In this document: in pieces, positions 22,231 to 43,330 of the stretch
How the letters are laid out: every line of letters starts with the position of its first letter
Numbering within the stretch: position 1 is the stretch's first letter
Source of the DNA: Homalodisca vitripennis
Lineage: Eukaryota > Arthropoda > Insecta > Hemiptera > Cicadellidae
Direction of reading: 5' to 3'
DNA length: 64,000 bases
Assembly: GCF_021130785.1 (NCBI RefSeq)
Contig: NC_060214.1
Coordinates: forward strand, 48,483,001 to 48,547,000
Notes under the pieces: generated by a model
Databases searched by the model: none
The model's input: the letters and a program-made list of their open reading frames with translations, nothing else
Told to the model about the DNA's origin: nothing
Program-made: the position numbers and the translations under genes

Positions 22231-22444
22231 GTTTTTTTCAATTTTTGTGTTGTTAGTTTCTTGGCTCATAATTTGACGTGAACAACTTTTTCTAACTATA
22301 GTTATAATGTGAGAACCAAAATGTTATTCTGAGCTGTCAAATTTAAAATTTAAAAATAGACATATCATTTTGTAGTACGCTAAATAAGTCATTAATTAAA
22401 TTCAATTTTAAGCAATAAGCCAGTTAATATGATTTTCATTATAA

Positions 22445-23045
22445 AAGGTAATTGAAGTAATTGAATAATGTAAAATTAAACTGTGTGCCGTACGTCAACT
22501 TAACAGTAAGAAAACAAACAACGTCTAAGAGGATAATTTATGGGTGAACACGACTTAAGTTAGAACGCAGGGATCAGCAGTCAGCCCGCACGATAATGCT
22601 GCTGTAGTGCTGATAGTAATGCTGTTGCTCTGATAATGGTAGGTTAATTGCTCTGGTTTACCACTAGTTGAACACCACATTGTTATAAGATATATGTTAA
22701 TTTAGCAGCAATGCAGAGTTACAATATTTCATACGATAAATGTAAACCCTTTTGTTTGTTTTAACTTCCTATAGTAGCAAATACACAAAATTGCAAACAT
22801 ATGCGTAACGTAAGTTTCTAACATGTTTCAAAATAAATTTTACACATTTATTCCTCTAAAACTTAAATTTATAATGATTAAAGATACAAAACAGTATTAA
22901 ATTGTGCAACCATCCAAATGTATTTCTTTCGTTAAATAAATTTGAATAACTTAAAGGCTTAGTTTTATAGGCAATTATTTAGAATATTTATGTACCATTT
23001 ATAAGAGCTTAACAAAGGAAGGAAGTGTCAGGAAGGTAATTTATT
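22445..23045 (+). repeat. Interspersed repeat family C, copy 1
   Basis: About 600 bp is colinear with 23918-24545. Shared landmarks are AATTTATGGGTGAACACGAC followed by TTAAGTTAGAAC, ACGATAATGCTGCTG, TTAGCAGCA, CTCTAAAACTTAAA and the final TCAGGAAGGTAATTTAT. A third copy is inverted at 42840-43330. There is no coding capacity. The size and the lack of an ORF suggest a non-autonomous element. I saw no clear terminal inverted repeat. Confidence 0.75.
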
Positions 23046-23917
23046 TAAAATTATTGCAAAATGAACGTAAATATAGAAACATTAAATAATAATTTACGGT
23101 TTCATAATTCCAAGATTTTCATTGATAATTTTACAATGAATTAAGAGAAACAGAGTTTATTCATTTATTCTATTGATTAGTACAGACCTGGGTGTTTACT
23201 GTGAGTAGAAATATAGTGTGGTGAGAGAGAAAAATTACAAAATGATTTTGTGATTGTTCACCATCACACTTAAATATAACCGATAATACTTCAGATACGC
23301 GTTTAAGTCACATATAAAGAAATGTAAAATAAAGAATTTTTGCATATGTTAAATTGTTTTTAGTGTTTTAAATTTTAAGATATAAATCGATATAAAATGT
23401 GTGTCAATCGTTATACAACATCCTGGTAAAAATGGTTCAGGTTAAATGATAATCTCAGTTACTGAAGATGATTAGACTTTGATTTTAGAATATCCTAACT
23501 TCAAAACAAAACTTTCAGAAGATCTACTTTCTCTAGCTACATTTATAAAAATACAGCCAAAGTGTAATTTCAAACCGACAGCAATTTAAAAGTGGACATA
23601 ATAATCTTATAGTAAATTGCACAAATCATAACGTTAAATTTAAAAAGAAAGAAAAACCTAAAAGGTTGTAATCTGCTTTTTATATTTTATTACTCTAAGT
23701 ACATAACTTGGAAATAAATTTAGTAGAAAACATTTTTTTGTATTTGTTATTTACTGCTATTGTAAGTACGTTATGTAATAGTATTATTTATTACTAAGCA
23801 CTGGCAATAATATTTGTTTGTAATATCCAGTTTGTTATTTTGGGGAAATAAATGATTTATTATTATTTTTATTATTATTTAATTTCAAACGAACAATGTA
23901 TAGACAAATTATATTGT
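23046..23917. other. Non-coding spacer between two family C copies
   Basis: This AT-rich sequence has no gene. It separates two direct copies of family C, so the whole 22.4-24.5 kb segment might be a duplicated or internally deleted larger element. Confidence 0.4.
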
Positions 23918-24545
23918 AAAAAGTAATTGGAGTTATTATAAAATGTAAAAGATGAATATGTAAACGTTCTGCAACAACTTAACACTAAGGAAGCAAATAA
24001 GAGACTCAGAACGTCTCTGGGCGGATAAATTATGGGTGAACACGACTTAAGTTAGAACACAGAGAGCGGCAGTCAGCACGTACGATAATGCTGCTGACTT
24101 GTTGATGGTAATGCTGAGCTGTGATAATAGGTTATTTGCTCTTGATTAGTACCACTTGTGTATCACATGCTGTAATTTATATGTGTATTAGCAGCATCCC
24201 AATTAAAATATTGCCTACACTAAATGTAAAACATATTGGTTCTTGCCATTTTGTTTTACATCTAACAGTAGCAATTTTATGTAATTATAAATATATGCTT
24301 AACGTACATTTTCTAAAATGCCTAATTAATAAATGTTATACATTAGATACTCTAAAACTTAAAATTATAGTGTTTAAGTTTTTATAAAATATTAATGTGT
24401 CCATACATTCAAAATGTTTTACTCTCGGAAGATTATGTTAAATAAGTTAAGAAGGTTGTTTTGTTATAGAAAATTATTGGAATATTTCCACACGATTACA
24501 AAAGCTTAAAGTCGGAACAAAGTTTCAGGAAGGTAATTTATATAA
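23918..24545 (+). repeat. Interspersed repeat family C, copy 2
   Basis: Direct copy of 22445-23045 with the same landmarks (ATTATGGGTGAACACGACTT, ACGATAATGCTGCTG, CTCTAAAACTTAAA, TCAGGAAGGTAATTTAT). An 88-codon open frame inside it (24121-24387) is not conserved in the first copy and is unlikely to be coding. Confidence 0.75.
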
Positions 24546-28045: not shown

Positions 28046-30012
28046 TTGAATCAAATCTTACCACACGTTACATTATGCGTATTAATATTTTTCTGAGCGT
28101 TAGTGAAGTCTATTAATGAACGGGTTTATAATTTTATATCTGTCTGTCTGTTTCTCCGCAAGCTATTTCGAGGACAAGTTGAGCTATGCAGAACTCGCAT
28201 GAAGCTTTTTGTCTATGTAGGAATCATCGATTTTGCGGTTACTCACTCCCTGTAGGGACTGTAAAATTTCCTAAAAGCGAATAAAAATATCATAAATAAC
28301 TAATGTTCAATTCACGTTGTGTAATATAATAGCAAGTACAAATATGTCACCTGCTTAGATTTAATGATGGATGGACACAAGGGCAATGTTCCGTCTCGCG
28401 TATATTATAACCCATTAACCATGTTGTTTAATTTTATACTCATACAATAATATAGCCGGTTATTTGTAGTTGATATTTAAATATTATTGCACAGGAGATT
28501 GTTTTAATGTAGAACAATATTAGAATATTTTGGAAACATGCTTATATTTTCTTTCTTACGCAAGCCCTTTTTTCCTCTTTTATGGAAGATAGTGTAGTTA
28601 AATAATCACCTTTAAGCTAGTGGCTAGCTAAAAAAATTCTTGTTTGAGTACTTTCAACTGGAAACGATTGTTCGATATATTTAATTATATAGAAAACGTT
28701 ATCTAACACATTAACAAATCTATCAGTTTACCGATTAGTTTTAGAGCTTAGTTTTGCTAAACAACTATTTGTTTTCGAGGTTACGTCATACAGTCTTACT
28801 ATGCAATGATATTTCCAACCATTGGCACAATAAGATCTTGCTAAATATGTGGAATTGTCAATTCAAAAATTTTGGATTAAACTAAACAAATAAAGGGGCG
28901 CAATAAATAAAGGAAATAATACATTTAGTATCAAGAAACATGTATCGTGTATTAAAGACATAATAGGATAAGAGTTTCCTTAGCTGGCAAGAGATTCTAT
29001 CTGTGACACAGAACTTCTCGACGGCAATCAAAGAGGTTTTGTCAGGAACTGTTTAATTAAGACCCAACTCCTAAATGAAACTGTCTTCTCGTCTGTCATC
29101 CAGACAGATCGCACAGAACTCAAGTATTCGTACATTAAACTGTGATTAAAACTAACAGATAAATATTATTGCCTGTAATTTAGTCTGAGTTAATAATAAA
29201 GATGACGTATTTAACACGATTGTTTTTGCATTCACTTCTACGGAACAATGGAATTATTGAACACGGTTTGAGCAAGTATCGTAATTATTAGAGAAGGAAA
29301 TATCAATACTAAGTGAGAACCCCTGGACTGGGGAAGTGAATGGTATTAGTAGGTAGATCTCCCTTTACTTTAAATAATGTCTAACAGCGTAAGAAACTCT
29401 GTGTTACTTATTAAAAAAACTTTAATTTAAATTTCAAAAAGTATAACACACAATAAGAATCCGTCAAAATCACGTATCACATAACTGCCTTTACTGAAGT
29501 TGCATACACATATTCAATTATATAAGTGCTTGTGATAATATATCATATTTGAAAATCATATACTTGTACACAATTTATTTTGCGTTTTTTCGTGACAATC
29601 ATGGTTAACCTTGAATTAAATGTAAAAGTTTCACTAACGTTGAGTAATAACCTATTGATTAACATGTACCTGAATGTTGCAACTGTTTGTAAGTTTTTTA
29701 ACGACATATCGTGCGGATTGTTAGTCAGACAGAGCAATATAAATCAATATTCCCTCCTCAAATTGTAGGTTTCTATAACGCGCAGCTACTAACTTTACGA
29801 TTCTCCAAATCACTACGCTAAACACTAATGTGTGCTATAATATGGTACATTATTGCATGAATGGACTAAACTGGTTGCGCTTAGCTTCCTCGTACTTCCG
29901 GCCACCTCTGTGAACTTCCGGTCTGAGTTAACCTCTTTATTTCCCTGTGTGTAACTACATACATATTCATGCCACATTTTACTGAATTAATCGGTTTTAA
30001 GGAAGGGAATGT
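28046..30012. other. Non-coding left flank of the LTR retrotransposon
   Basis: AT-rich DNA with no gene. A segment around 28110-28260 (repeated TCTG units, then a mixed-composition stretch) looks like a piece of a dispersed repeat. The bases just left of the LTR (ending GGGAATGT) show no direct duplicate right of the 3' LTR. Confidence 0.45.
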
Positions 30013-31669
30013 TGTAACATGTTACTTTTTTAAACATACAAAATTAAATTTAATTTAAAAGATTCATTAGTAAAATTGAAAAAATTAGAACAGACATTTT
30101 TTTAACAATTACGAATAACGACTTGAGTTTTATTATTATCATTAAAAGGAGCGAAATAATTATTTTACTGGCGACGAGTCAGACGCTATCTGGCAGGTCC
30201 GTGCCCGCACGGATATCACCGCTTCCCCTCCGATCACAGCGAGAGGAGAAGGCTTCCCCCACCCCCGCGATCGCGCGAACCTATATATTTTTATATTAGG
30301 TATAAAGTTTTCTCGACCATCATTCTGTTGTCTGATTATTATCACATTTCTTGGCGAATCTCTAATCTACTCGGAAATATTTTTCTTTCTTATTGAAGTT
30401 CAATCTAATTTTCATTTTATTAATTATTTATATCTTTGTAAGTGATTATCTTTATTTTTCTCCTTTATCTATGTCGGGACTCGCAACCCTTTCTTTTTAT
30501 TTTTGCGAACGTCCTGACACCCTCACCCCGATAACCTCCATCAAAATATTTATTTAACGATATTTTAGTTTATTTTTCTGGTGAACTGTGCAGATAGGGT
30601 GAGTGTTCAATTTTTCTTTGATATTCATAGAGCCCTAATATTTATAGTAATTTAGCTTAGTAGCCTTATTGCATGGTTTAAATCATTTACCTTTATCTTA
30701 GCTTGCATATGGTAGGGTAATTCTGCATGGTGTGTTATAAGTGATTACTTTGTTTTTTTTTTATTTTCCAAAATTATATGCCTGAGAAAGTAAACTTGAT
30801 ATTTTATTTTGGAGCTATACACTTGCCTACAGAATAAATACAGCTTAGTATATTCTTATATTATAAATTCATCTAGCTTTTGCATCCCGTAGAAATATTT
30901 TTTGTTAATGGGTAGTGCTTGCTTTATGTATATAGTAGTTGCACTGTGATATTGGTGAATGGCTAATTTTTAATTTATAAGATTGTATATTTGCTATTGG
31001 TGTTATTTGAATATTGCTTTTGTTTGCCATTGCTATTCATATTTTGCTTTGATTTTGTATTTTGCTTCTACTAACCATCATTATTTAACCGATTAATTAT
31101 TCCAACCCCGGGCTCTTACAATAATTACTGTATACGACTCCCCGACCAAGTTATCAGTGGAGACTACTCAGCATACTTGTAATTCCTCACTGACCGACGT
31201 ATTAATAAACAATACAGTTGTTTTCGAAAATCGAACTCGCTTGAACAGTATCTTTCCTAGAACAAGAAATTTTTATTTTTCTGAGCAAGATTATTTTTTG
31301 TTATTTTTTACTTCTTCAAAATTTTATTGGAGTTGACGTGATGAAGTAAGCCCAACGTTATTTTGGAAATATCAATTTTTTCCGCAGGGCCCTCTGATTC
31401 GACTCCTAACAATAAATAATAGTTATATGAAATTCTCGAACCCTGGAATTTTCTAACCCAGCTCGACTGGCTATCTGGCAAGTTGCGACCGAAAATAACA
31501 TCGCAATGTATCTTAAATTCCTTATAGTTGTTCACCCTTAAATCAAAGTTACTATTAAATATTTAAATTTTATTCCATGTGCTAATTTTAAAGATCAGTA
31601 GTAATTTCTGAAAAGCATATGCAGGTGGGGTGAACAAAAACTATATGGAGTTAAAAATAGAGTAGGGTC
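30013..31669 (+). repeat. 5' LTR (internally deleted)
   Basis: It starts TGTAACATG and matches the 3' LTR to AGAGTAGGGTC. The part 30288-31669 is almost identical to 40910-42293 (about one substitution and two homopolymer-length differences in 1.38 kb). The part 30013-30287 differs from 39737-40006 by roughly 11 substitutions and several indels. It lacks the 903 bp found at 40007-40909, including the likely transcription start and leader. The canonical end may instead be AATAACA at 31720, just before a primer-site-like sequence. Confidence 0.88.
31308..31535 (-). other. Antisense 75-codon ORF in the 5' LTR
   Basis: The same 75-codon minus-strand frame occurs in both LTRs (here and at 41932-42159), as expected from their identity. 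Its start, CDVIFGRNLP, loosely recalls the GRD-type C-terminal motif of retropepsins. It may be a captured antisense fragment or chance. I do not call it a gene. Confidence 0.2.
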
Positions 31670-31726
31670 GACTGGCTATCTGGCAAATTGCGAATATTTT
31701 CGCTTGCCCCGAAAATAACATCGCAA
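31457..31726 (+). repeat. Duplicated 44-base motif around the LTR/leader junction
   Basis: CGACTGGCTATCTGGCAAG and the following GTTGCGACCGAAAATAACAT occur inside the LTR near 31462-31502. They recur, with an 18-base insertion and small changes, at 31669-31726 just outside it. The 167 bases between the copies are also present in the 3' LTR, which ends there. The duplication makes the true LTR border ambiguous. Confidence 0.6.
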
Positions 31727-31728
31727 AG

Positions 31729-31749
31729 TGGCGCACGAACAACTGGGAC
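31729..31749 (+). other. Possible primer-binding site (lysine tRNA-like)
   Basis: TGGCGCACGAACAACTGGGAC resembles the tRNA-Lys-complementary primer site type TGGCGC..CGAACA..GGGAC, with a 3-base insertion and one change. It lies 60 bases after the shared LTR end but only 8 bases after a TG...CA-style end (AATAACA, 31720). No other convincing tRNA complement was seen closer to 31669. Confidence 0.35.
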
Positions 31750-31882
31750 TGTAATATACGTTAATTTACGAACTTAACGATTTACTTTACACTTTTTTGT
31801 GAATATACTTTACAATTTACAACTAAAAATTGCTAAAGTTTTACAACAACTTCTTGTTTAAGAAAATTCGATACGTACAATA

Positions 31883-32821
31883 ATGATGTACTTACTAAAC
31901 CTTTTTCTCCGCCCTTCTCAAATTTTATTCTTTATGTATGTAAACGGAAATGATAGACAAGGGGACGCAAACAAACGAAAAACAACTACGACTACTACGA
32001 CTTCAACTCGGGTTACGATACCACAGGCTTCTGTTGGTACATTACCAAAACTTTGTCCCCCTACAGTCGCACCGATTACTACTACGCCTACTGCTACTAT
32101 TACCACCACCACTACTACTAGTACTACTGCTACTACAATGGGCCTACCGATCCCTCCTACAACTATTCCCAATCCCCAAATTATGCTTCCTTCCCCTTCG
32201 GAGAATGATCCTCGTGTGGGCTGGATTTATAAACTACAAAAGAACGACCTACAGAAAGAGTTAAGAAAATTTAATCTGAATCCGGATGGTAATGTGGCTG
32301 AACTACGAAAGCGACTTGTAACTTTTCTTAGATCTGGAAAAACACCTCCTGAACCTCTTCCACTAAGAACAAAATTATTGTCATACGGACAAAACCTCGC
32401 GACCAATGTAGTTTTCTCAGCATTAGGACCGATTAGTGCCTCTCATGTTGACGGTCATATACAACATGAGGAAGTTAGCATTCGAGAAATGTTAAACCTC
32501 CCTCACACAAAACGAAGAGTGTTTAAGTCATACCCAGTACATATGATAGATAAGCCAGAACTGTGTCACGATAAACCCAAATCTTTTACCGATAAACGAA
32601 GGTTCGAGCTCTCTACAACTGTCCCGACTAACACTACTCAGCCAAGGCATCTTACTACAGATACAACGACTACCATTCCTACTTGTTGGAATTGCGAAAC
32701 TAAAGGGCATAAATACCACCAGTGTCCTCTCCCTAAAACCATTCGCTGTTTTAACTGTAAAAAAAATAGGAATCCGAACCGTCCAGTGCCCTTGCAGGCA
32801 GGGAAACATTTCCGGAGCTAG
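31883..32821 (+). CDS. Gag-like protein with SAP-like motif and CCHC knuckle
   Basis: This ORF of 312 residues is the structural gene of the retrotransposon. Residues 34-86 are Thr-rich, encoded by an ACT/ACC-rich microsatellite-like run. Residues 118-150 fit a SAP helix-extended-helix motif (LQKELRKFNL...G..AELRKRL), a DNA-binding fold. Residues 268-281 form a CCHC zinc knuckle (CWNC....H....C). A second knuckle begins at CFNC (289) but lacks its His and final Cys. I see no capsid-like region between the SAP motif and the knuckle, so part of Gag may be deleted. The frame ends at TAG (32819-32821) and continues open, in the same frame, into pol. The start is the first ATG after the leader and is uncertain. 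Confidence 0.7.
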   Translation: MMYLLNLFLRPSQILFFMYVNGNDRQGDANKRKTTTTTTTSTRVTIPQASVGTLPKLCPPTVAPITTTPTATITTTTTTSTTATTMGLPIPPTTIPNPQIMLPSPSENDPRVGWIYKLQKNDLQKELRKFNLNPDGNVAELRKRLVTFLRSGKTPPEPLPLRTKLLSYGQNLATNVVFSALGPISASHVDGHIQHEEVSIREMLNLPHTKRRVFKSYPVHMIDKPELCHDKPKSFTDKRRFELSTTVPTNTTQPRHLTTDTTTTIPTCWNCETKGHKYHQCPLPKTIRCFNCKKNRNPNRPVPLQAGKHFRS

Positions 32822-34281
32822 GAGCGTCAGAGGTGTCCCGGGACTCAGGGGCAACAAATCACCTCAATCGAATGGCCCAAGTGGCTCAACCAAATAAAAG
32901 AATTTAACAAAAGCAGCTGTGCAGAAGTTAAATCGAACGATCCTAGACCATTTGTATCCATTAAGATTCAAGAAACTACCTTTTGTGCACTGCTTGATAC
33001 GGGATCGATGGTGACTATTATAGGGGAAAGAGTAGCTCATCATCTATTACAGTTAGGCGTTAGACCTAAGAACGTAAATGTTAATGTTAATATGGCCGAT
33101 AGAACAAATAGCCAGATATCTCAGGCCTTCGAATTTAACTGCGAGATAGCCGATATTAGAACTAAGGTACGCGCCCTGTTTCTACCAGGCTTAACTACGC
33201 CGATGATTTTGGGTATGGACGTTATAACGCCTTTAAAACTGATCGATATCACTCCTCATGAAAGTACTGCAGAAACAGTGACTAGATGCGATAATTCAAA
33301 GACTATTCATACTGATGCCGTTATGACACTAACAGAAGTAGAAAGTAAAAAACTGAAAGAATTCCTTGATTATCAGTTTAATTTGTTCGATGGTTTTATT
33401 GGTCGCACGACATTATTGGAACATAAAATTCGCCTTAAAACTGATACACCCATTAAACAGAGGTATTATTATCGCAACCCGGCAATGCAGGCGATCATTG
33501 ACAAAGAAGTTGACAAGATGCTGGAGTCAGGCATCATTGAACCATCATCTAGTCCTTGGAGCTCTCCACTAGTGCTGGTTAAGAAATCGAATGGAAAAGT
33601 AAGGTGTTGCATCGACTTAAGGCGAGTTAATGCGGTCAGTGAGAAGGATGCATATCCCCTTCCCCAAATAAGCGCGATTCTCGACAAACTGAGAAATGCT
33701 TGCTATATATCCACGATCGACTTAAAAGATGGCTATTGGCAGGTACCTCTCGAAGTTAACAGTAGACCAATTACGGCTTTCACCGTTCCCGGCAGAGGGT
33801 TGTTCCAATTCAAGGTCATGCCATTTGGCTTACACTCTGCTCCGGCTACCTTTCAGAGATTGCTAGACCAAGTGATAGGACCTGAGTTTGAGCCCTACGC
33901 TTTTGCCTATTTAGACGATTTGGTGCTGGTATCCCGAACTTTCGAAGAACATTTGAAACTTCTCAAAGAAGTGTTTGAACGCCTTAGAAAGGCAGGATTA
34001 TTACCAAATATGGAAAAATGTAACTTTTGTAAAAAGGAGTTGAAATACCTTGGCCACGTAATAAACGAGAGAGGAATCCAGACGGATCCAGAAAAGGTTA
34101 AATCAATTGTGGATTTTCCAGCACCTAAAACTGTAAAACAAGTACGAAGTTTCTTGGGACTTGCGTCTTGGTACAGACGATTTATCGAAAACTTTGCAAA
34201 CATATCTAAGCCATTGACGAAACTCTTAAGAAAGGGAAATAGATGGGAATGGACGGATTCTCAAGAACGAGCATTCAATTC
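32822..34281 (+). CDS. pol: Pol, 5' part: retropepsin and Ty3/gypsy reverse transcriptase (interrupted)
   Basis: In the same frame as gag after the UAG stop. The aspartic protease shows DTGS at 32996 and its C-terminal ILGMD motif near 33207. Reverse transcriptase runs from about 33400. Visible motifs are LVLVKKSNGKVR, STIDLKDGYWQ, MPFGLHSAPATFQ and the catalytic YLDD at 33908-33919, followed by the GHVI and FLGLASWYRRFI connection typical of Ty3/gypsy. The reading frame is then broken by a nested LINE at 34282 and reads into it until a stop at 34480. Apart from the insertion, the RT domain itself appears intact. The first ATG of the frame is at 33008, inside the protease, so translation must come from gag readthrough or an upstream start. 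Confidence 0.9.
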
Positions 34282-35877
34282 AATTGTCAAGCAAGCTAAA
34301 ATGTACCTGATCAAGCCCCTGACTCGTGTTATAAATTCCTCTTTTGTGTCTGGAATCTTTCCTGAAAAACTGAAAATCTCTAAAATTATAACCGTTTTCA
34401 AAAAGGAAGTGAAACTGACCCTAATAATTATCGACCTTTGTCCATTATGTCTACTTTTTCAAAACATTTTGAACGTGTAATGTATTTACGACTAGTTGAT
34501 TTTCTTGAAACCAATAATATATTTGACAGAGAACAGCATGGATTCAGAGCTGGTAAGTCTGTCATAACTGCTGGGACGGATTTTATTGAAACCATAGTGG
34601 ACAATATTGATAAGGGGAATTATGTGGTTGGCATTTTTATGGATCTTACCAAGGCCTTTGATAGTGTATCACATGAAATATTAATAGAAATTTTAAAAAA
34701 TATTGGTATTAAAGATGTTACATTAAACTGGTTTGCTTCTTATATTTCAAATAGACCACAGTATGTTGACTTGCAGTTTGTAACCAAATTAAATCAAATC
34801 ACTCATGCAAAATCTTCTTTAAAAATATCAAGGCATGGAGTGCCACAAGGTTCCATTCTGGGGCCAATTCTTTTCTTACTTTATATGTTGGGTTTGCCAA
34901 ATGTTCTGACAAAGGATTAGAGCAAGCTATGTCTATATGCAGATGACTCTAATTTAATAGTTGCTGGTAAAAGTTTGAATGAAATAGAAATTGCAGGTAA
35001 AACGGAACTCATGTGTATTAATAATTATTTTTGCAGTAAAAATTTATTACTAAACTTTAAAAAAAACAAATATGATCTCTTTCTGCACAAAACAAAATAG
35101 AAAAAAACTTATGCCAAATATAACAATAGACAATATACAAATTTCTCAATTAACTAACACTAAATTTTTAGGATTACTTCTAGACGAGAACTTAACTTGG
35201 AACGAACATATTTTGGCTTTGCAAAAAAAGATTTCTTCCGGATTGTTTGCTCTTAAAACCATGTCAAAATATTGCTCAACTGAAATTTTGAAAACCATTT
35301 ATTATGCCCACATACATTCTCATATAAACTTTGGTGTTGTGTTGTACGGGGCCACTAGTAATTCAGATCTGTTAAGCATTCTTCAACTTCAAAAAAAAGC
35401 AATTAGGATAATCATGAACTTAAAGGATGGGGAATCTGTGAAAGAGTATTTTTCAAAATTAGGAATTTTAACTATTTACGGAATGTATATACTGGAAACT
35501 GTTATGATGGTTAGATCAAATTTTGACAAATTACCCCGATTAGGGTCAAATCACAACTACTTTACTAGAAATAGAAATCAATTGGCAGTACATAAACATG
35601 CATTGGAATTTCATTATAAAAAACCTAGCTCGGCAGGTATTAAATTTATAAACCAAGTCCCTAGGAATTTATTTAACATAGAAAATGATTTATTGTTTAA
35701 AAAACATTTTAAAAGATTTTTGACAGATAAGGCTTTGTATTCATTTGGAGAATATATGGACACATAGGATATAATAAAATAAAAAATGTAAGATGATTCC
35801 ATTCTTTATTTGTATAAATTCAAATGTAATTGTACAAATAATATGAATAAAGTTAATTTAAATTTGAATTTGAATTC
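34282..35877 (+). mobile_element. Nested 5'-truncated LINE (jockey/CR1-like)
   Basis: It inserted into the gypsy pol between RT and RNase H. AATTC is found on both sides (34277-34281 and 35873-35877), so a target duplication of 5 bases is likely, though the tail sequence makes its length uncertain. The copy starts within the RT domain and ends with a polyadenylation-like AATAAA and a short AATTTG-repeat tail, as in CR1/jockey-type elements that end in short tandem repeats rather than poly(A). Orientation is the same as the host element. Confidence 0.85.
34318..35767 (+). pseudogene. LINE reverse transcriptase fragment
   Basis: This is a non-LTR RT of the jockey/CR1 group, lacking the endonuclease and N-terminal RT. 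Motifs are NNYRPLSIMS (about 34428), GFRAGKS (about 34540), MDLTKAFDSVSH (about 34639), HGVPQGSILGP (about 34834), YADD (about 34935) and the thumb FLGLLLDENLTW (35167), then a C-terminal region to 35767. It is broken three times: a frame change in the A-run at 34399-34403, a stop at 34918-34920 and another frame change at about 35080-35095. The copy cannot make polymerase. Confidence 0.85.
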
Positions 35878-37625
35878 CCTTAAAGCAAAACTTTCTACCG
35901 CACCGGTCTTAGCCTGCCCTGACTTCAAGGAAACTTTTGTAGTCCATGTGGATGCCTCCAATGAAGGTTTAGGGGCTTCGCTTACTCAAACTATTGGCAA
36001 GCGGGAGAAGGTTATTGCATATGCGAGTCGACTTTTACACGAGAATGAAAAGAAATTTTTCCGTAACCGAGAAAGAATGCCTAGCTCTGGTATGGGCCGT
36101 TCAAAAATTTCGTCCGTACCACGAAGGGTACAAGTTTATAGCGATAACTGACCATCAAGCTTTAAAGTGGTTGATGAGTTTGGAGAAACCATCTGGAAGA
36201 CTTGCTCGCTGGATGCTGGAACTACAGCAATATGACTTCGAAGTCCAATACCGCAAGGGAGTCCTGAACCGAGTAGCAGACGCACTCTCCCGGTATCCGA
36301 TCGACACGTCAAGCTGTGATCCTGTAGTCGGTTCAACCGTTGGTTGTAGCACCGCCAACGACAGTTCGAATAACTCTCGGAGGCAACTACCGCTCAAAAC
36401 CAAGGAACCAAGGCTAGAAACAGCTTCAGACAAACTTATGCCCGATTGGCACCCGAAAATGCTTCGGAAGGTATCTGCAAGTCCAAATAAATATGCAGAT
36501 TACACCATTCGAGGAAATAAACCATACCGAAAAATCGAGAAATCATCTACCGATCCAAAATCAAATTGGAAACTTTGCGTACCAGATTCTCTAAAATCCA
36601 ATGTACTGAGAGAAAATCATGACAGCACAACAGCTGGTCATTTAGGTGTAAACAAAACGATCCAGAAAATCAGCGCCAGATACTTTTGGCCTGGATGGAG
36701 AAACGATATTCGAAAATACGTAAAAAATTGCGACACTTGCCAGAGATACAAGGTGGAACAATGTAAACCGGTGGGTAAAATGCATTTCAGACGCACCCAA
36801 GGACCTTGGTTCACAGTCACCAGCAATCTGATGGGACCTTTACCTCGATCTTGTAAAGGAAACAGATTTGTCCTGGTGTTCCAAGATACCTTTACCAAAT
36901 GGGTAGAAATTGTAGCATTACCATCAGCAACTGCTAAGAAGGTGGCAGAAAAGTTCGAAGACCTTATATTGATGCGATATGGTGCTCCAGAAGTAGTACT
37001 GACAGATAACGGAACGCAGTACCTCTCGAAAATCTTCCAAAAACTTACAAGTGATTGGGGAATAATTCACAAAACAACCGCACCTTATAGTCCGCAGAGT
37101 AATCCAACAGAGCGAACGAAGCGTGTATTGAAAACTATGATTTCTCAGTACGTGCGGAATGATCATCGTAGTTGGGATCAACATTTAAATGAATTTAGAT
37201 TTGCGTTGAATACATGTTGTAGCGAATCAACAAAATTTACTCAGGCCATGCTCAATTTTGGCAGAGAACTTAAAACTCCAAACTGTATCTACGGCCAAGT
37301 ATTAGAGAATATCACTCAAGGTGCTGTTAAATCTAGCGAAATCGATCTACATGAATCTCGAATGAACTTCATGTTAAAATTAAGGGAAAAATGTAAGGTG
37401 AATCTGGAAAAAGCACACACTCGCCAAGCTCACTACTATAACCTCAGAAGAAGAGACAACAGTTTTGTAATAGGCCAACAAGTTTTGAGGCGCAGCCATA
37501 CACTTTCCTCAGCGGCTGAGAATATAGCAGGAAGATTGGCCCCAAAGTTTGAAGGACCATACATCCTACATAGAAAGATAGGATGGAATATATTCGAACT
37601 TCGAGATCTCCATAAAAAAACATAG
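35873..37625 (+). CDS. pol: Pol, 3' part: RNase H and integrase (with frameshifts)
   Basis: RNase H resumes in the original frame (DASNEGLGASL with its Asp) and changes frame in the T-run at 36056-36060. It continues in the frame starting at 35994 with the KECLALVWAV Glu and the TDHQALKWL Asp. The integrase zinc finger shows H209, H216, C246 and C249 of that frame. In the catalytic core the position of the first Asp is Asn (N278, in TSNLMGPLP). D338 (LTDNGTQ) and E373 (NPTER) are present with 34 residues between them. The C-terminal region (GQQVLR...KFEGPY) ends early at 37625. The expected GRAHTKDLK-like ending lies in another frame, pointing to a base change in the A-run at 37614-37620. Confidence 0.88.
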
Positions 37626-37736
37626 GCCGAGCCCATACGAAGGATCTGAAGACAACTCTTCCTTGGAGGCACACTAGATCCTTGTGTTGCCCCGTAGTGT
37701 GCCCACAGTTTCCCTCCCACTAACCTATTTTCCTGC

Positions 37737-39164
37737 ATGACTGCTTGGCTGCACGATGCTTTTGTTTTAACAGATTTGAAGATGAGACCCACTATTCTGG
37801 TGGCAGAAGTTCTGATGGAGTGTCTGAAGCCCGGTGGAAGGCTCAATGACACTGTCATCGAAGGGGTACCTCCGCCTCATTGAGAGACGAAACCAAGAGG
37901 GCGTGCATGGGTTCTTGACAGTCCTAGCCCTAGATACTTTTTATATGAAGGACCTCGAGGATGGTTTTTTATTAGGGCAGCTCGGAGGTTTAAGAAAGTC
38001 AACCCGTTCGACACCGAACTAATATTAATCCCCCTACACATTCCGACCGGTATCGGACATTGGGTCCTTATAGCTGTCCACCCCCACGCCAAATGGATAT
38101 CGACTTTCGATTCGTTGGGTGGCACTCACATACCCGCGATGGAAAGATTACTCCACGACCTAGGGAGATACGCCCAATCTCACGATTTAGAGTGGTCCCC
38201 ACAAGCATCGCTCCTTCACGACACGTCTCGCACTTGCCCTAGGCAGCAAAACAACGTGGACTGTGGGGTGTTTCTCACGTGGTTCGCGGAGCGACTCTCC
38301 CGAGGGCAAACAATTGAAACAAGACAACTCAACACACTAGTGTGGCGAGTCCACTTGGAGGAAGCGTTGAGAACGAGCCGGTTGGGTGCATTCGACGGAC
38401 ACCTTGCCGAATGTCAGGAACTCCTCGATCCCAATGTTCTCAACGCCGAAGCTTGGAATCTCCTAGAGTGCGGCGTGGAAGACGACACACGTCGTCACCG
38501 TACGGAAGTGCCCTCCAGGTTGGAGCTGGAGTACGACGCCTTTATGGCGGAACTCAACGAGGCTTGCGACGAGTACACCGAGGAAGTCCCCGCCAACACG
38601 ACATCCGGTATCTCCGTCGACGACCGGAACCTCAGTCTACTAATTTTCGACGACGAGAATTGGTTGGACATCTTGTGGGAGGAGCTACAACAGGAACTCC
38701 GTGCCTCGTCCGCTGATCCTCCGCATCTCGTTCCCGACTCTCCTGTAGCGACTACCGACACACCGACCGAAACTCTATCGAATATTGATCCGATTCCGAA
38801 ATCTCCGACCTCCTATCCCGACGAAATCCCGAATCCAGCTCCCAACGACCCGATCGAATGTTCATCTTGCCCCTCCCCTTGCCTATCCCTCATCGCGGAC
38901 GAGGTCTGGCTTAATGACCAACTAGGGGAGAACCAGTCGAGCTCTCAAGTATCCGGCCACTCAGCGACCTCTGGAATTGATCCAACCCCATCCTCTTCAA
39001 ACCCTACTCCCACCACTTCCACGTCAAACCTCCCTCCTACTACTTCCTGTCCAAACCCCTCGACATCCTCGAACGATGCATCACACGGTCCCGAACCTCG
39101 TCCACGCCTGAAGCGGAAGAGAGAACGGAAGAAGACTATTATATTTCCAGGGGCGCTAGGATAA
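37737..39164 (+). CDS. Ulp1/SENP-like (C48) cysteine protease ORF of the retrotransposon
   Basis: This ORF lies between integrase and the 3' LTR. The core has the signature of SUMO/NEDD8-type isopeptidases: a GRLNDTVIEG block (like WLND..I) at about 37833, GHWVLIAV with His at 38058, FDSLGG with Asp at 38109, QQNNVDCG with Gln at 38244 and Cys at 38262. His-Asp spacing is 17, Asp-Cys 51 and Gln-Cys 6 residues. Yeast Ulp1 (His514, Asp531, Gln574, Cys580) has 17, 49 and 6. The catalytic half and a 270-residue acidic, Ser/Pro/Thr-rich tail share one open frame (about 37881-39164) ending in a basic KRKRERKK cluster that resembles a nuclear signal. The N-terminal half changes frame twice, at the G-run 37862-37865 and the T-run 37965-37970. 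Predicted role: cleaving SUMO-like modifiers from host or element proteins. The substrate is unknown. Confidence 0.85.
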
Positions 39165-39736
39165 AAATTCCAAAGCGATTTCTGCGGATGTAAGCTCGCG
39201 AAAAACATGAAAGTGAAATTTTTTTTGGTGCCAAGAATTACTATAGTACTCCTACAACAAATCACCTTTCTATCCCAAATTATTCCTTGTAAGACTGCCA
39301 CTCCCCTGTACCCGGCGTGTCTAATATCCTTCCCTTAGAGATTTTATATTTTCGAGTTCGATTTTTGTTTATTTTTATTAGTAAAGCGAGATCCGATTTT
39401 GTTTTCCAGTAATTATATGTATTGTGAAAGACTGTGCCCTAATATATTTTAGTGTAAATTTTAGTTTTTTTTTAAATACTTTTTTGGTTATGCAGATTGC
39501 AATTTGTTTTTAGTTATATTTTCTTACCAGAATATGCTATCATTTTATTTTATTTGTTGATTAAAACATTAATTTCGTGCGAAAAGAGTCTTTTAGTTTG
39601 TTTCATTTCATTTCAGAAACTTTCAAAACGGATACAAGAGGAGATTAAACTACGGTAACCTTTTTTGTTTATCTATATACAAATACCACATTTAACTTTT
39701 TTCTTCTTTTTTTTGTTTCCCGAAGTACAGATGGGG
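39165..39736 (+). other. Spacer between protease ORF and 3' LTR, ending in a polypurine tract
   Basis: This AT-rich non-coding segment closes with GATGGGG at 39730-39736, directly before the TGTAACA of the LTR. That is the expected place and composition for the plus-strand primer of reverse transcription, although the tract is short and includes a T. Confidence 0.6.
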
Positions 39737-39994
39737 TGTAACATGATACTTTTTTTAACATACAAAATTAAATTTAAATTTAAAATATTCATTAGTAAAA
39801 TTGAAAAAATTATAACAGACATGTTTTTAACAATTACGAATAACGACTTGAGTTTTATTATTATCATTAAAAGGAGCGAAATAATTATTTTACTGACGAT
39901 GAGTCAGACGCTATCTGGCAGGTCCGCACGGATATCGTCGCTTCCCCTCCGATCACGGCGAGAGGAGAAGGCTTCCCCGACCCCCGCGATCGCG

Positions 39995-40045
39995 CGAACC
40001 TATATAATGACGGCCGATTGAAGACAAAGGGAGACAGTCAGTGAC
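39995..40045 (+). promoter_or_regulatory. LTR core promoter: TATA box with initiator-like TCAGT
   Basis: TATATAA at 40001-40007 sits in an otherwise GC-rich stretch and is followed by TCAGT at 40038-40042, a match to the arthropod initiator consensus. The distance from the TATA start to the A is 39 bases, a little long for a canonical pair, so the start may lie a few bases upstream. In the 5' LTR everything after TATATA is deleted. Confidence 0.45.
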
Positions 40046-40161
40046 CGCGACACCGCCGACGACCGCTGCTCACCACGACTACTTCGACCCCTTCCCACGA
40101 CCCCGCTCGCTGAACGACTGTACATCGCGACTCGACGCCCGCCGCCGATATCCAGCACCAG

Positions 40162-40671
40162 GTAAGGAACAACGACCCTGTTCCTTACTAAAGTGTTTTA
40201 TCTCCGCCATCAACAATTCTTCCAATTTTTTTTATGTGAAACAGAATTTAATATTTTATTGGTCATTTATGAAAATTAATCGATCTGAAATATATTAGTA
40301 ATGTTTGATGGTTATAGATTTATCTTGATAAGATAATTGTTTGATTTTTAATATACTCTTAATAATTTATTTGATATTTAAGGGTATCATTAAATTTAAA
40401 TAGAATATATTTGACTTTCTCAATTTACTTAAACTTTAATTACTTTTTCAACTTAAATTACTAAAGTTATTCTTTTCTTCAATTTAACTTATATTTATAA
40501 TTTCAATTACACAGATTATTTTTTTTGTCATTTCGACTAAATTTTTAAAAGTAAAAAAAAAGTAAAGAATGTCTTATTTTACCAGGCGAAGTTAGGGCTA
40601 AGAAGCCCTCTCTAACACTTAACCTGGAATTTTAATTACTGTGTTAAAATTTTCCTTTCTAAATTTTTCAG
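40162..40671 (+). other. Intron-like segment in the LTR leader
   Basis: CAG/GTAAGG at 40159-40167 is a strong donor-like site 120 bases after the putative start. TTTCCTTTCTAAATTTTTCAG, ending at 40671, is a good acceptor with a pyrimidine tract. The 510 bases between are AT-rich with T-runs, unlike the GC-rich exon-like start. A second donor-like AGG/GTGAGT lies at about 41221 (30598 in the 5' LTR). This suggests, but does not show, a spliced leader. Confidence 0.35.
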
Positions 40672-41170
40672 ATCTCGCATTTCTTTTCCTGGCGATCGAT
40701 CTGGCACCTCATCCCGAGTTTCCTTTACGAACTTTCCTAAAAAATATCTCCTACCCGGAAAAAAAATTATAACAGTCGGGACTCGCCTTACCACTGCTTT
40801 CTTTCCGGCGATAGTACTGGCATCCTATACCCACGTCTTCCTTTTATAAATACTTTCTTCCCACCGACCTCGTCCTCATAAACTAAATCTTATGTTCAAT
40901 CGATGTAAATTTTTATATTAGGTATAAAGTTTTCTCGACCATCATTCTGTTGTCTGATTATTATCACATTTCTTGGCGAATCTCTAATCTACTCGGAAAT
41001 ATTTTTCTTTCTTATTGAAGTTCAATCTAATTTTCATTTTATTAATTATTTATATCTTTGTAAGTGATTATCTTTATTTTTCTCCTTTATCTATTTCGGG
41101 ACTCGCAACCCTTTCTTTTTATTTTTGCGAAACGTCCTGACACCCTCACCCCGATAACCTCCATCAAAAT
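40668..41170 (+). repeat. Three imperfect leader repeats in the 3' LTR
   Basis: Blocks beginning near 40671 (CTCGCATTTCTTTTCCTGGC), 40777 (CGGGACTCGCCTTACC) and 41097 (CGGGACTCGCAACCC) share the order ACTCGC, TTTCTTT, GCGA, then a CAC/CCC-rich end. They look like an old triplication of a unit of about 70-110 bases. The 5' LTR keeps only the third. Confidence 0.4.
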
Positions 41171-42293
41171 ATTTATTTAACGATATTTTAGTTTATTTTT
41201 CTGGTGAACTGTGCAGATAGGGTGAGTGTTCAATTTTTCTTTGATATTCATAGAGCCCTAATATTTATAGTAATTTAGCTTAGTAGCCTTATTGCATGGT
41301 TTAAATCATTTACCTTTATCTTAGCTTGCATATGGTAGGGTAATTCTGCATGGTGTGTTATAAGTGATTACTTTGTTTTTTTTTTTATTTTCCAAAATTA
41401 TATGCCTGAGAAAGTAAACTTGATATTTTATTTTGGAGCTATACACTTGCCTACAGAATAAATACAGCTTAGTATATTCTTATATTATAAATTCATCTAG
41501 CTTTTGCATCCCGTAGAAATATTTTTTGTTAATGGGTAGTGCTTGCTTTATGTATATAGTAGTTGCACTGTGATATTGGTGAATGGCTAATTTTTAATTT
41601 ATAAGATTGTATATTTGCTATTGGTGTTATTTGAATATTGCTTTTGTTTGCCATTGCTATTCATATTTTGCTTTGATTTTGTATTTTGCTTCTACTAACC
41701 ATCATTATTTAACCGATTAATTATTCCAACCCCGGGCTCTTACAATAATTACTGTATACGACTCCCCGACCAAGTTATCAGTGGAGACTACTCAGCATAC
41801 TTGTAATTCCTCACTGACCGACGTATTAATAAACAATACAGTTGTTTTCGAAAATCGAACTCGCTTGAACAGTATCTTTCCTAGAACAAGAAATTTTTAT
41901 TTTTCTGAGCAAGATTATTTTTTGTTATTTTTTACTTCTTCAAAATTTTATTGGAGTTGACGTGATGAAGTAAGCCCAACGTTATTTTGGAAATATCAAT
42001 TTTTTCCGCAGGGCCCTCTGATTCGACTCCTAACAATAAATAATAGTTATATGAAATTCTCGAACCCTGGAATTTTCTAACCCAGCTCGACTGGCTATCT
42101 GGCAAGTTGCGACCGAAAATAACATCGCAATGTATCTTAAATTCCTTATAGTTGTTCACCCTTAAATCAAAGTTACTATTAAATATTTAAATTTTATTCC
42201 ATGTGCTAATTTTAAAGATCAGTAGTAATTTCTGAAAAGCATATGCAGGTGGGGTGAACAAAAACTATATGGAGTTAAAAATAGAGTAGGGTC

Positions 42294-42839: not shown

Positions 42840-43330
42840 TAGATGAATAGATATATCCTTCAATATCTTTAAAAGTACATTTTAGAGAAACCATTATGTA
42901 ACATATATTACTAACACTTGTTAAAAATTTATTTATAATTATGTGCAATTGCTAAATTTGGAAGCAGAAACACTGAAAAACAAAGAGGATTGCATTATTC
43001 GTAGGATATATTTGAATTACATTGCTGCCAAATTCGCAAATATCTTACTACAATGTGGTGCAAAGCTGGTAGTAAACAAGAGCAATTAACCTCCCATTAT
43101 CAGAGCATCAGTATTACCATCAGCACTTCAGCAGCGTTATCGTACGTGCCGACTGCCGATCCGTGCGTTTGTAACTTAAGTCATGTTCACGTTCGCCTAT
43201 AAATTACTTGCACTTAACCGTTTTGAGTCATTTGTCTTCTCGGTGTTAAATTAATAAAGTTAGAACCTTTTCTTTTCCGTTATTCATTTATTCCTTATAA
43301 TGTAGTATAAATATTTAACGTCTATTGTTT
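42840..43330 (-). repeat. Interspersed repeat family C, copy 3 (inverted)
   Basis: The reverse complement follows the two copies at 22445 and 23918. It contains GTGAACATGACTTAAGTTAC, CGTACGATAACGCTGCTGAAG, GGTTAATTGCTCTTGTTTAC and a TCTCTAAAATG block in the same order. This shows that family C is dispersed in both orientations rather than a local duplication. Confidence 0.7.

What the first reader, a model, noticed from the sequence alone, without database searches (positions are those of the whole stretch)
37737..39164. A Ulp1/SENP-type deSUMOylase-like protease ORF carried by a Ty3/gypsy retrotransposon
The ORF sits inside the element, after integrase and before the purine tract and 3' LTR. 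Its catalytic His (38058), Asp (38109), Gln (38244) and Cys (38262) are all present at spacings of 17, 51 and 6 residues, close to yeast Ulp1 (17, 49, 6), with GHW, FDS and QxNxxDCG contexts. Ulp1-like genes are known as passengers of some DNA transposons (for example plant MULEs). I do not know of them as a standard component of Ty3/gypsy elements. A retrotransposon bringing its own SUMO protease could counter SUMO-dependent silencing or process its own proteins.
Basis: partly seen in the sequence, partly recalled or inferred. Interest (0 to 1): 0.9.

Follow-up and report, generated by a model that had tools for sequence, protein, structure and literature searches.

The report
SUMO-protease gene inside Ty3/gypsy retrotransposons
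A leafhopper genome carries a group of virus-like jumping genes that hold an extra gene for an enzyme of the kind that removes the SUMO tag from proteins, possibly to escape the host's silencing system; this copy is dead, but related copies with an open gene exist.

Summary
The ORF is a Peptidase_C48 (SENP1/2-like) protease between integrase and the 3' LTR of a Ty3/gypsy element bounded by LTRs and a 4-bp target-site duplication. The host is inferred to be Homalodisca vitripennis. The window copy is broken: an out-of-frame stretch with a stop near the ORF's start, a LINE in pol, a gag deletion and a rearranged 5' LTR.
It is not a one-off capture. In the host genome I found seven element families with a homologous C48 ORF behind integrase. 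Catalytic His, Asp, Gln and Cys are kept in 21 of 21 aligned rows (18 loci of the seven families, three proteins of unidentified source). In the same 21 rows the Trp of the WLND motif, kept in 32 of 34 other C48 rows, is replaced. dN/dS is 0.2-0.4 in the informative pairs (not tested for significance).
Against a strict need: in the window's family one deletion removed the ORF, and that C48-less form has multiplied (18 of 40 scored places; 18 others hold the stretch full length).
Most likely mechanism, inferred only: removal of SUMO from chromatin silencing factors or from the element's own proteins. My searches of the held library showed no report of C48 in Ty3/gypsy elements. New variant of a known kind.

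The parts
30009..30012 (.). target-site duplication ATGT, left copy
   Evidence: identical to 42130-42133
30013..31725 (+). 5' LTR, rearranged; begins TGTAACATG, ends AACATCGCA. 30284-31669 is a 99.7% copy of 40906-42293, which includes host flank beyond the 3' LTR
31729..31750 (+). primer-binding site of tRNA-Lys type (type recalled); here TGGCGCACGAAC..., TGGCGCCCGAACAGGGAC in L012
31862..32818 (+). gag remnant: SAP-like match (below Pfam cut-off); lacks about 782 bp at 32504/32505 present in L009, L012, L013
32822..34281 (+). pol, first part: aspartic protease and reverse transcriptase
   Evidence: Pfam RVT_1 E 1.8e-35, RVP and gag-asp_proteas; 32505-34281 is 97.6% identical to L009
34282..35869 (+). 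LINE-type insertion that splits pol (second RT, RVT_1); similar 8-mers TTCAATTC / TTGAATTC at its edges, possible TSD
35870..37625 (+). pol, second part: RNase H and integrase; open frame 35973-37622
   Evidence: Pfam RT_RNaseH, Integrase_H2C2, rve
37737..39164 (+). C48 (SENP/Ulp1-like) accessory ORF; open frame 37884-39161; broken here by an out-of-frame stretch about 37866-37968 with TGA 37881
38058..38264 (+). catalytic residues: His 38058, Asp 38109, Gln 38244, Cys 38262
   Evidence: kept in 21 of 21 rows of relatives
37769..39218 (+). segment absent from the C48-less copies of this family; T-rich at both ends
   Evidence: L061, L062; 18 places share the junction
39069..39161 (+). basic C-terminal tail (KRKRERKK...), shared in kind by the other families
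39725..39736 (+). polypurine-like tract before the 3' LTR
39737..42129 (+). 3' LTR
42130..42133 (.). target-site duplication ATGT, right copy

Best explanation
This is a dead copy of a Ty3/gypsy LTR retrotransposon from a lineage of elements that carries an extra gene behind integrase, where errantiviruses and retroviruses carry env (recalled). The gene encodes a separate protein of about 400-500 residues: an N-terminal SENP1/2-like cysteine protease, an acidic linker and a basic tail. SHOWN by sequence: the protease family and catalytic residues, the place in an LTR-bounded element, homologous ORFs in seven families of one genome plus three related proteins of unidentified source, low dN/dS in the informative pairs, and a shared loss of the WLND tryptophan. 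INFERRED: the protein enters the nucleus through its basic tail and removes SUMO (or a close ubiquitin-like tag) from proteins at element chromatin, or from the element's own proteins. By doing so it weakens SUMO-dependent heterochromatic (piRNA-type) silencing, to the benefit of this element and, in trans, of C48-less relatives.
Against: No activity, expression or localisation was tested. The Trp of WLND (recalled as part of the SUMO Gly-Gly clamp) is replaced in all 21 rows, so SUMO may not be the substrate. A C48-less form of the same family has multiplied, so the protein is not needed in cis. In yeast the protease restrains Ty1 rather than helping it, and the review says the function of Ulp1 in KIU elements is unknown. 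Of 12 pairs, L026/L027 gives 0.72 and the pairs with dS under 0.03 give 0.50-1.75 except L019/L021; no significance test was made. IN and C48 distances among families do not correlate once F5 is left out (500 of 720 permutations as high; with F5, 411 of 5040).
Confidence: 0.45

Rival explanations
1. The protease acts on the element's own proteins: it removes SUMO from Gag or integrase, or cuts the polyprotein as the CE-clan proteases of adenovirus, poxvirus and ASFV do (roles recalled).
Against: Pol already has an aspartic protease. No excess of GG-type cleavage sites in four Gag or Pol proteins (3, 0, 1, 1 sites against shuffled means 2.6, 0.6, 1.2, 1.3). The fold is much closer to SENP than to viral proteases.
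Confidence: 0.25
2. It is a protease with changed specificity (NEDD8, ubiquitin or another tag) rather than a deSUMOylase, since the Trp of the WLND motif is lost in the whole group.
For: Trp replaced in 21 of 21 rows; kept in 32 of 34 other C48 rows with a residue there, 3 of 3 bird SENP2-like rows and the 1 of 4 LINE rows that reaches it.
Against: Fold and sequence are nearest to SENP1/2/5, above NEDP1. The second Trp, after the catalytic His, is kept in all 21.
Confidence: 0.2
3. It is a passenger fragment of a host SENP gene with no function for the element.
For: The window copy is broken. A C48-less subfamily thrives. Several close pairs show no constraint.
Against: Homologous long ORFs in seven families that differ at 44-56% of IN and 65-79% of C48 positions, open in many copies, with dN/dS 0.2-0.4 in the informative pairs and all catalytic residues kept.
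Confidence: 0.05
4. Two or more independent captures: F5 took its C48 separately from the other six families.
For: Holding all C48-bearing IN rows as one clade is rejected (p-AU 0.00016), because F5 falls among elements whose C48 status is unknown.
Against: In the C48 tree F5 joins the other gypsy C48s (support 72, not strong) and it shares the lost Trp and a basic tail. The outgroup proteins come without the DNA behind integrase, so they may carry the ORF too.
Confidence: 0.35

Closest known systems
Ginger1 DNA transposons (Hydra and others), Ulp1 at the C-terminus of a Gypsy-like integrase/transposase (PMC2836005, abstract and passages)
   Same: Gypsy-type integrase with an Ulp1 (pfam02902) protease behind it
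   Different: Ginger1 is a cut-and-paste transposon with TIRs, and the Ulp1 is fused to the transposase; here it is a separate ORF in an LTR retrotransposon with gag and RT
NeSL and Utopia-1_TSP non-LTR retrotransposons (PMC4640811, passages)
   Same: retrotransposon with an Ulp1-like cysteine protease
   Different: non-LTR elements with a restriction-like endonuclease; protease N-terminal in the RT protein
Plant MULEs: Kaonashi/KIU VANDALs with a VANC gene carrying Ulp1 (PMC13317346, passages)
   Same: transposon-borne Ulp1, conserved over long times, linked with anti-silencing
   Different: DNA transposons of plants; Ulp1 domain within VANC genes
CryptonF and CryptonS of oomycetes with a C48 peptidase (PMC3212892, passages)
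   Same: C48 peptidase carried beside the mobility gene, in CryptonS as an additional protein
   Different: tyrosine-recombinase DNA elements
Errantiviruses (gypsy of Drosophila) with env as third ORF (recalled)
   Same: extra ORF between IN and 3' LTR
   Different: env is an entry glycoprotein; here a cysteine protease
SENP1/SENP2 (cellular deSUMOylases)
   Same: fold, catalytic His-Asp-Gln-Cys
   Different: lacks the WLND Trp; the extra sequence lies behind the protease, whereas in the SENP2-like relatives seen here (P0046-P0048) it lies before it

Membership tests
Ty3/gypsy (Metaviridae) LTR retrotransposon | LTRs, PBS, polypurine tract and TSD | tested here: met
   (TSD ATGT; tRNA type of the PBS is recalled)
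Ty3/gypsy (Metaviridae) LTR retrotransposon | pol order PR-RT-RNaseH-IN, and gag | tested here: met
   order seen in one 1683-aa frame of L024 (Retrotrans_gag to IN)
Peptidase family C48 (clan CE) | profile match and catalytic His-Asp-Gln-Cys | tested here: met
SENP1/2-type deSUMOylase | SENP fold | tested here: met
SENP1/2-type deSUMOylase | Trp pair that clamps the SUMO Gly-Gly (WLND Trp and the Trp after the catalytic His; role recalled) | tested here: not met
   first Trp replaced 21/21, second kept 21/21
SENP1/2-type deSUMOylase | cleaves SUMO | not testable with these tools
   needs enzyme assay
Ginger1 transposon | TIRs and Ulp1 fused to a Gypsy-like transposase | tested here: not met
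   LTRs, RT and a separate ORF
Errantivirus | env-like ORF behind IN | tested here: not met
   the long ORF in that place is C48 by Pfam, with no env match; two + strand frames of 82 and 132 aa inside it were not scanned
Errantivirus | spliced subgenomic RNA for the third ORF | tested here: inconclusive
   the start of P0001 fits a joint of 36077-36089 to 37774; acceptor-like sites before the ORF are no better than shuffles (52 to 443 of 1000 as good, seven families)

The most novel reading that the evidence does not exclude
One ancient capture gave a widespread clade of insect Ty3/gypsy elements an Ulp1-type protease in the env position, which serves as a transposon-encoded counter-defence against SUMO-dependent piRNA/heterochromatin silencing. 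C48-less deletion derivatives live off it in trans as cheaters, so one genome holds a natural experiment on whether a retrotransposon needs its own SUMO protease.
Probability: 0.3. Interest if true: 0.88.

Novelty: new variant of a known kind. Interest (0 to 1): 0.72.

Why it matters
Transposon-borne Ulp1 proteases are known in DNA transposons, Cryptons and some non-LTR elements, and have been suspected of helping transposition without proof. Seven families of LTR retrotransposons with such a gene as a separate ORF, next to an otherwise similar subfamily that has lost it by one deletion, make the question testable in one animal: does a self-encoded deSUMOylase lift silencing, in cis or in trans? 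SUMO takes part in piRNA-guided silencing in Drosophila, so a positive answer would identify an animal retrotransposon counter-defence.

Tried and rejected
One-off host gene insertion: rejected by the other families and copies.

C48 in viral contigs: three scans (protein, alignment, integrase) found no relative. The protein search takes only candidates up to 1.75 times the query's length, so a full pol-C48 fusion could be missed; none of the 120 pol relatives listed, out of 465, shows PF02902.

3' splice-site test before the ORF in seven families: not better than shuffles. Correlation of IN and C48 distances: no signal without F5. GG-site test for polyprotein cleavage: no excess.

The LTR identity of 99.7% is not an age: the identical block includes host flank, so it is a later duplication or conversion, or an assembly error. 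The 276 bp outside it are 93.5% identical.

Whether the C48-less form is nested among C48 copies: the tree of the shared 3' region is unresolved; loss is inferred from the other families and the shared junction.

Limits: the IN tree used 23 of the 120 listed outside proteins, chosen by hand, and a quick search; IN rows with 250 or fewer filled columns were dropped (L014), and L016, L034 and L041-L048 had no IN match. One search compared 79 IN places with 34 of the 118 C48 matches (fragments and most distant ones left out; by eye none of those omitted lies beside a listed IN place). The Pfam-wide search scored 150 of 1093 candidates, the C48 search 98 of 577, the IN search 79 of 13354 and the DNA search 40 of 215, so copy counts are lower bounds. 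Of the three proteins of unidentified source only P0043 was searched in the host genome.

Full report
OBSERVATION. The frame 37884-39161 is Peptidase_C48 by Pfam (E 7.7e-14) and matches human SENP1 and SENP2 chains in the PDB. The ORF probably starts at ATG 37737. That start is in frame, and the host protein P0004 begins in nearly the same way. Between about 37866 and 37968 the window copy is out of frame relative to its relatives and meets TGA 37881.

ELEMENT. The insertion spans 30013-42129: LTRs beginning TGTAACATG and ending AACATCGCA, a TGGCGC-type primer-binding site, a purine tract before the 3' LTR, and a 4-bp TSD ATGT. It holds a gag remnant, PR-RT, RNase H-IN and the C48 ORF. It is dead in several ways. 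A LINE sits in pol (34282-35869), gag lacks about 782 bp, and the 5' LTR was partly overwritten by a copy of the 3' LTR and its flank. The nearest proteins are those of Homalodisca vitripennis (P0001-P0008), a leafhopper, so I take that as the host; the window lies in an unnamed 2.3-Gb assembly.

NOT A ONE-OFF. The C48 protein search in the host genome gave 118 matches, 98 of 577 candidates being scored. I fetched 20 of those places with flanks, near and distant ones of my choice. Nineteen of 20 have the integrase region upstream on the same strand, in L014 only its last third; the exception, L016, is a degraded copy. A Pfam-wide search gave 150 scored places of 1093 candidates. From these I chose 20 stretches upstream of the protease, and 11 of 20 hold the integrase region. 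Of the other nine, L034 has no match within the 1.9 kb fetched although its C48 (L053) belongs to F6. The remaining eight look like a second kind of element: the three followed far enough downstream have C48 plus a GDSL-like match in one ORF and an endonuclease ORF behind it. The gypsy loci fall into seven families, F1 (the window's) to F7, each at 100% SH-aLRT in a quick IN tree. The ORF is separate from pol: its first ATG lies 59 to 243 bases behind the pol stop in eight loci of F1-F5 whose pol end is open; L012, with a broken pol, shows 419. Repeats that fit LTR pairs around the whole were seen in L012, L013, L019, L021 and L026. For F3, F6 and F7 the fetched stretches did not show both LTRs.

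SELECTION. Of 12 pairs within families, dN/dS is 0.33 (L009/L014), 0.37 (L012/L014), 0.36 (L049/L050, of which L050 has a divergent, probably shifted tail), 0.22 (L019/L021), 0.40 (L009/L012), 0.50 (L022/L028), 0.65 (L027/L056), 0.72 (L026/L027), 0.79 (L009/L010), 1.16 (L051/L052), 1.72 (L024/L025) and 1.75 (L051/L053). The last four pairs differ at very few sites. No significance test was made. Between families the protease domain shows pN 0.44-0.55 against pS 0.69-0.88, with synonymous sites saturated in eight of nine pairs.

HISTORY. The quick IN tree puts F1-F4, F6 and F7 in one clade (SH-aLRT 100) together with P0051-P0054 and P0078 (Macrosteles), whose DNA behind integrase I could not see. 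F5 falls outside. Holding all C48 bearers together is rejected (p-AU 0.00016), and so is holding F1-F4, F6 and F7 together without those five proteins (p-AU 0.000456). The C48 tree keeps all gypsy C48s on one side of a branch (support 72 with F5, 89 without, neither strong), and the LINE C48s far away. F5 shares the lost Trp. One capture with unseen intermediates, or two captures, both remain open. IN and C48 distances show no correlation among the six families without F5. P0043 finds no match above 55% in the host genome, so the group probably reaches beyond this species; its organism is unknown to me.

LOSS. Integrase copies of F1 are many. Of 79 scored integrase places, 8 (six of F1, two of F3) have a C48 match within 3.5 kb behind them and 71 do not, some of these being truncated. 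Two C48-less copies, L061 and L062, run from window position 37768 straight to 39219 at a run of T. A DNA search with 37560-39740 scored 40 of 215 candidates: 18 match the whole stretch, 18 show the same junction (query 207-209 to 1659-1661; one at 1685), and 4 are partial. One deletion thus founded a successful C48-less subfamily; the integrase search lists many C48-less places with 1106-aa open frames. The protein is dispensable in cis. Whether the subfamily borrows it in trans is unknown.

EXPRESSION. The host gene model P0001 begins with residues that fit 36077-36089 in RNase H joined to 37774, behind TTTTAACAG. Other host models hold pol-region sequence before the C48 ORF: P0005 the stretch behind IN in another frame, P0045 the RNase H to IN linker. 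That also shows that those loci have the same arrangement. The published annotation pipeline was trained with RNA-seq (PMC8496328, passages), but I saw no reads. A splice-site test over seven families was not significant.

HOW IT MOST LIKELY WORKS. Shown: a complete C48 active site in a SENP-like fold, kept in many retrotransposon copies. Inferred: nuclear entry by the basic tail, and removal of SUMO or a related tag. The element could gain by weakening SUMO-dependent silencing; [quoted passage not shown] Ty1 RNA rises when yeast Ulp1 is impaired or mislocalised (PMC8585004, passages), which shows that SUMO balance controls LTR elements, though there the protease restrains them. Plant KIU elements join Ulp1 to anti-silencing proteins, the role of the Ulp1 part being unknown (PMC13317346, passages). 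The lost Trp leaves a changed specificity open.

NOVELTY. Ulp1/C48 is in print for Ginger1, MULEs, Cryptons, NeSL and Utopia. Full-text searches for Ulp1, C48 or SUMO protease with gypsy, Ty3 or LTR retrotransposon showed no paper on a Ty3/gypsy element with this gene in their listings (12 of 12 listed, 10 of 10, 2 of 2, none, 20 of 331, 1 of 1). I opened passages of only some of these. The library holds open-licence papers only, and Repbase reports were not searchable. I therefore call it a new variant of a known kind.

Noticed in passing
L041-L048 and L057-L060 (host genome): A second class of C48 loci: N-terminal PWWP-like or PHD-like stretches and coiled coil (by eye), C48, then a GDSL-lipase or OSK-like match (below the Pfam cut-off in L058 and L059, above it in L060), followed in those three by an endonuclease ORF (Exo_endo_phos type; below cut-off in L059) with RT-like sequence by eye. 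This looks like C48 within ORF1 of a LINE with an APE-type endonuclease, unlike NeSL and Utopia, where the protease sits in the RT protein.
   Followed up: partly
window 31862-32818; L009:129-1361; L022:365-2020: SAP-like DNA-binding motif in the N-terminal part of Gag in F1 and F3, just below the Pfam cut-off.
   Followed up: partly
window 30284-31669 and 40906-42293: 99.7% identical block that includes host flank beyond the 3' LTR: a recent duplication or conversion into the 5' LTR, or an assembly error.
   Followed up: partly
window 32504/32505 against L009:771-1554: The window gag lacks about 782 bp present in three other copies of the family.
   Followed up: no
L020:7770-9900 and L025:8225-9901 (reverse complement numbering): Sub-repeat arrays with periods of about 100 and 150 bp downstream of the C48 ORF in F2 and F4 copies, matching the start of the same stretches.
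   Followed up: no
window 22438-24545 and 42920-43190: Diverged dispersed repeat (71-78% identical), two copies in tandem and one inverted beside the element.
   Followed up: no
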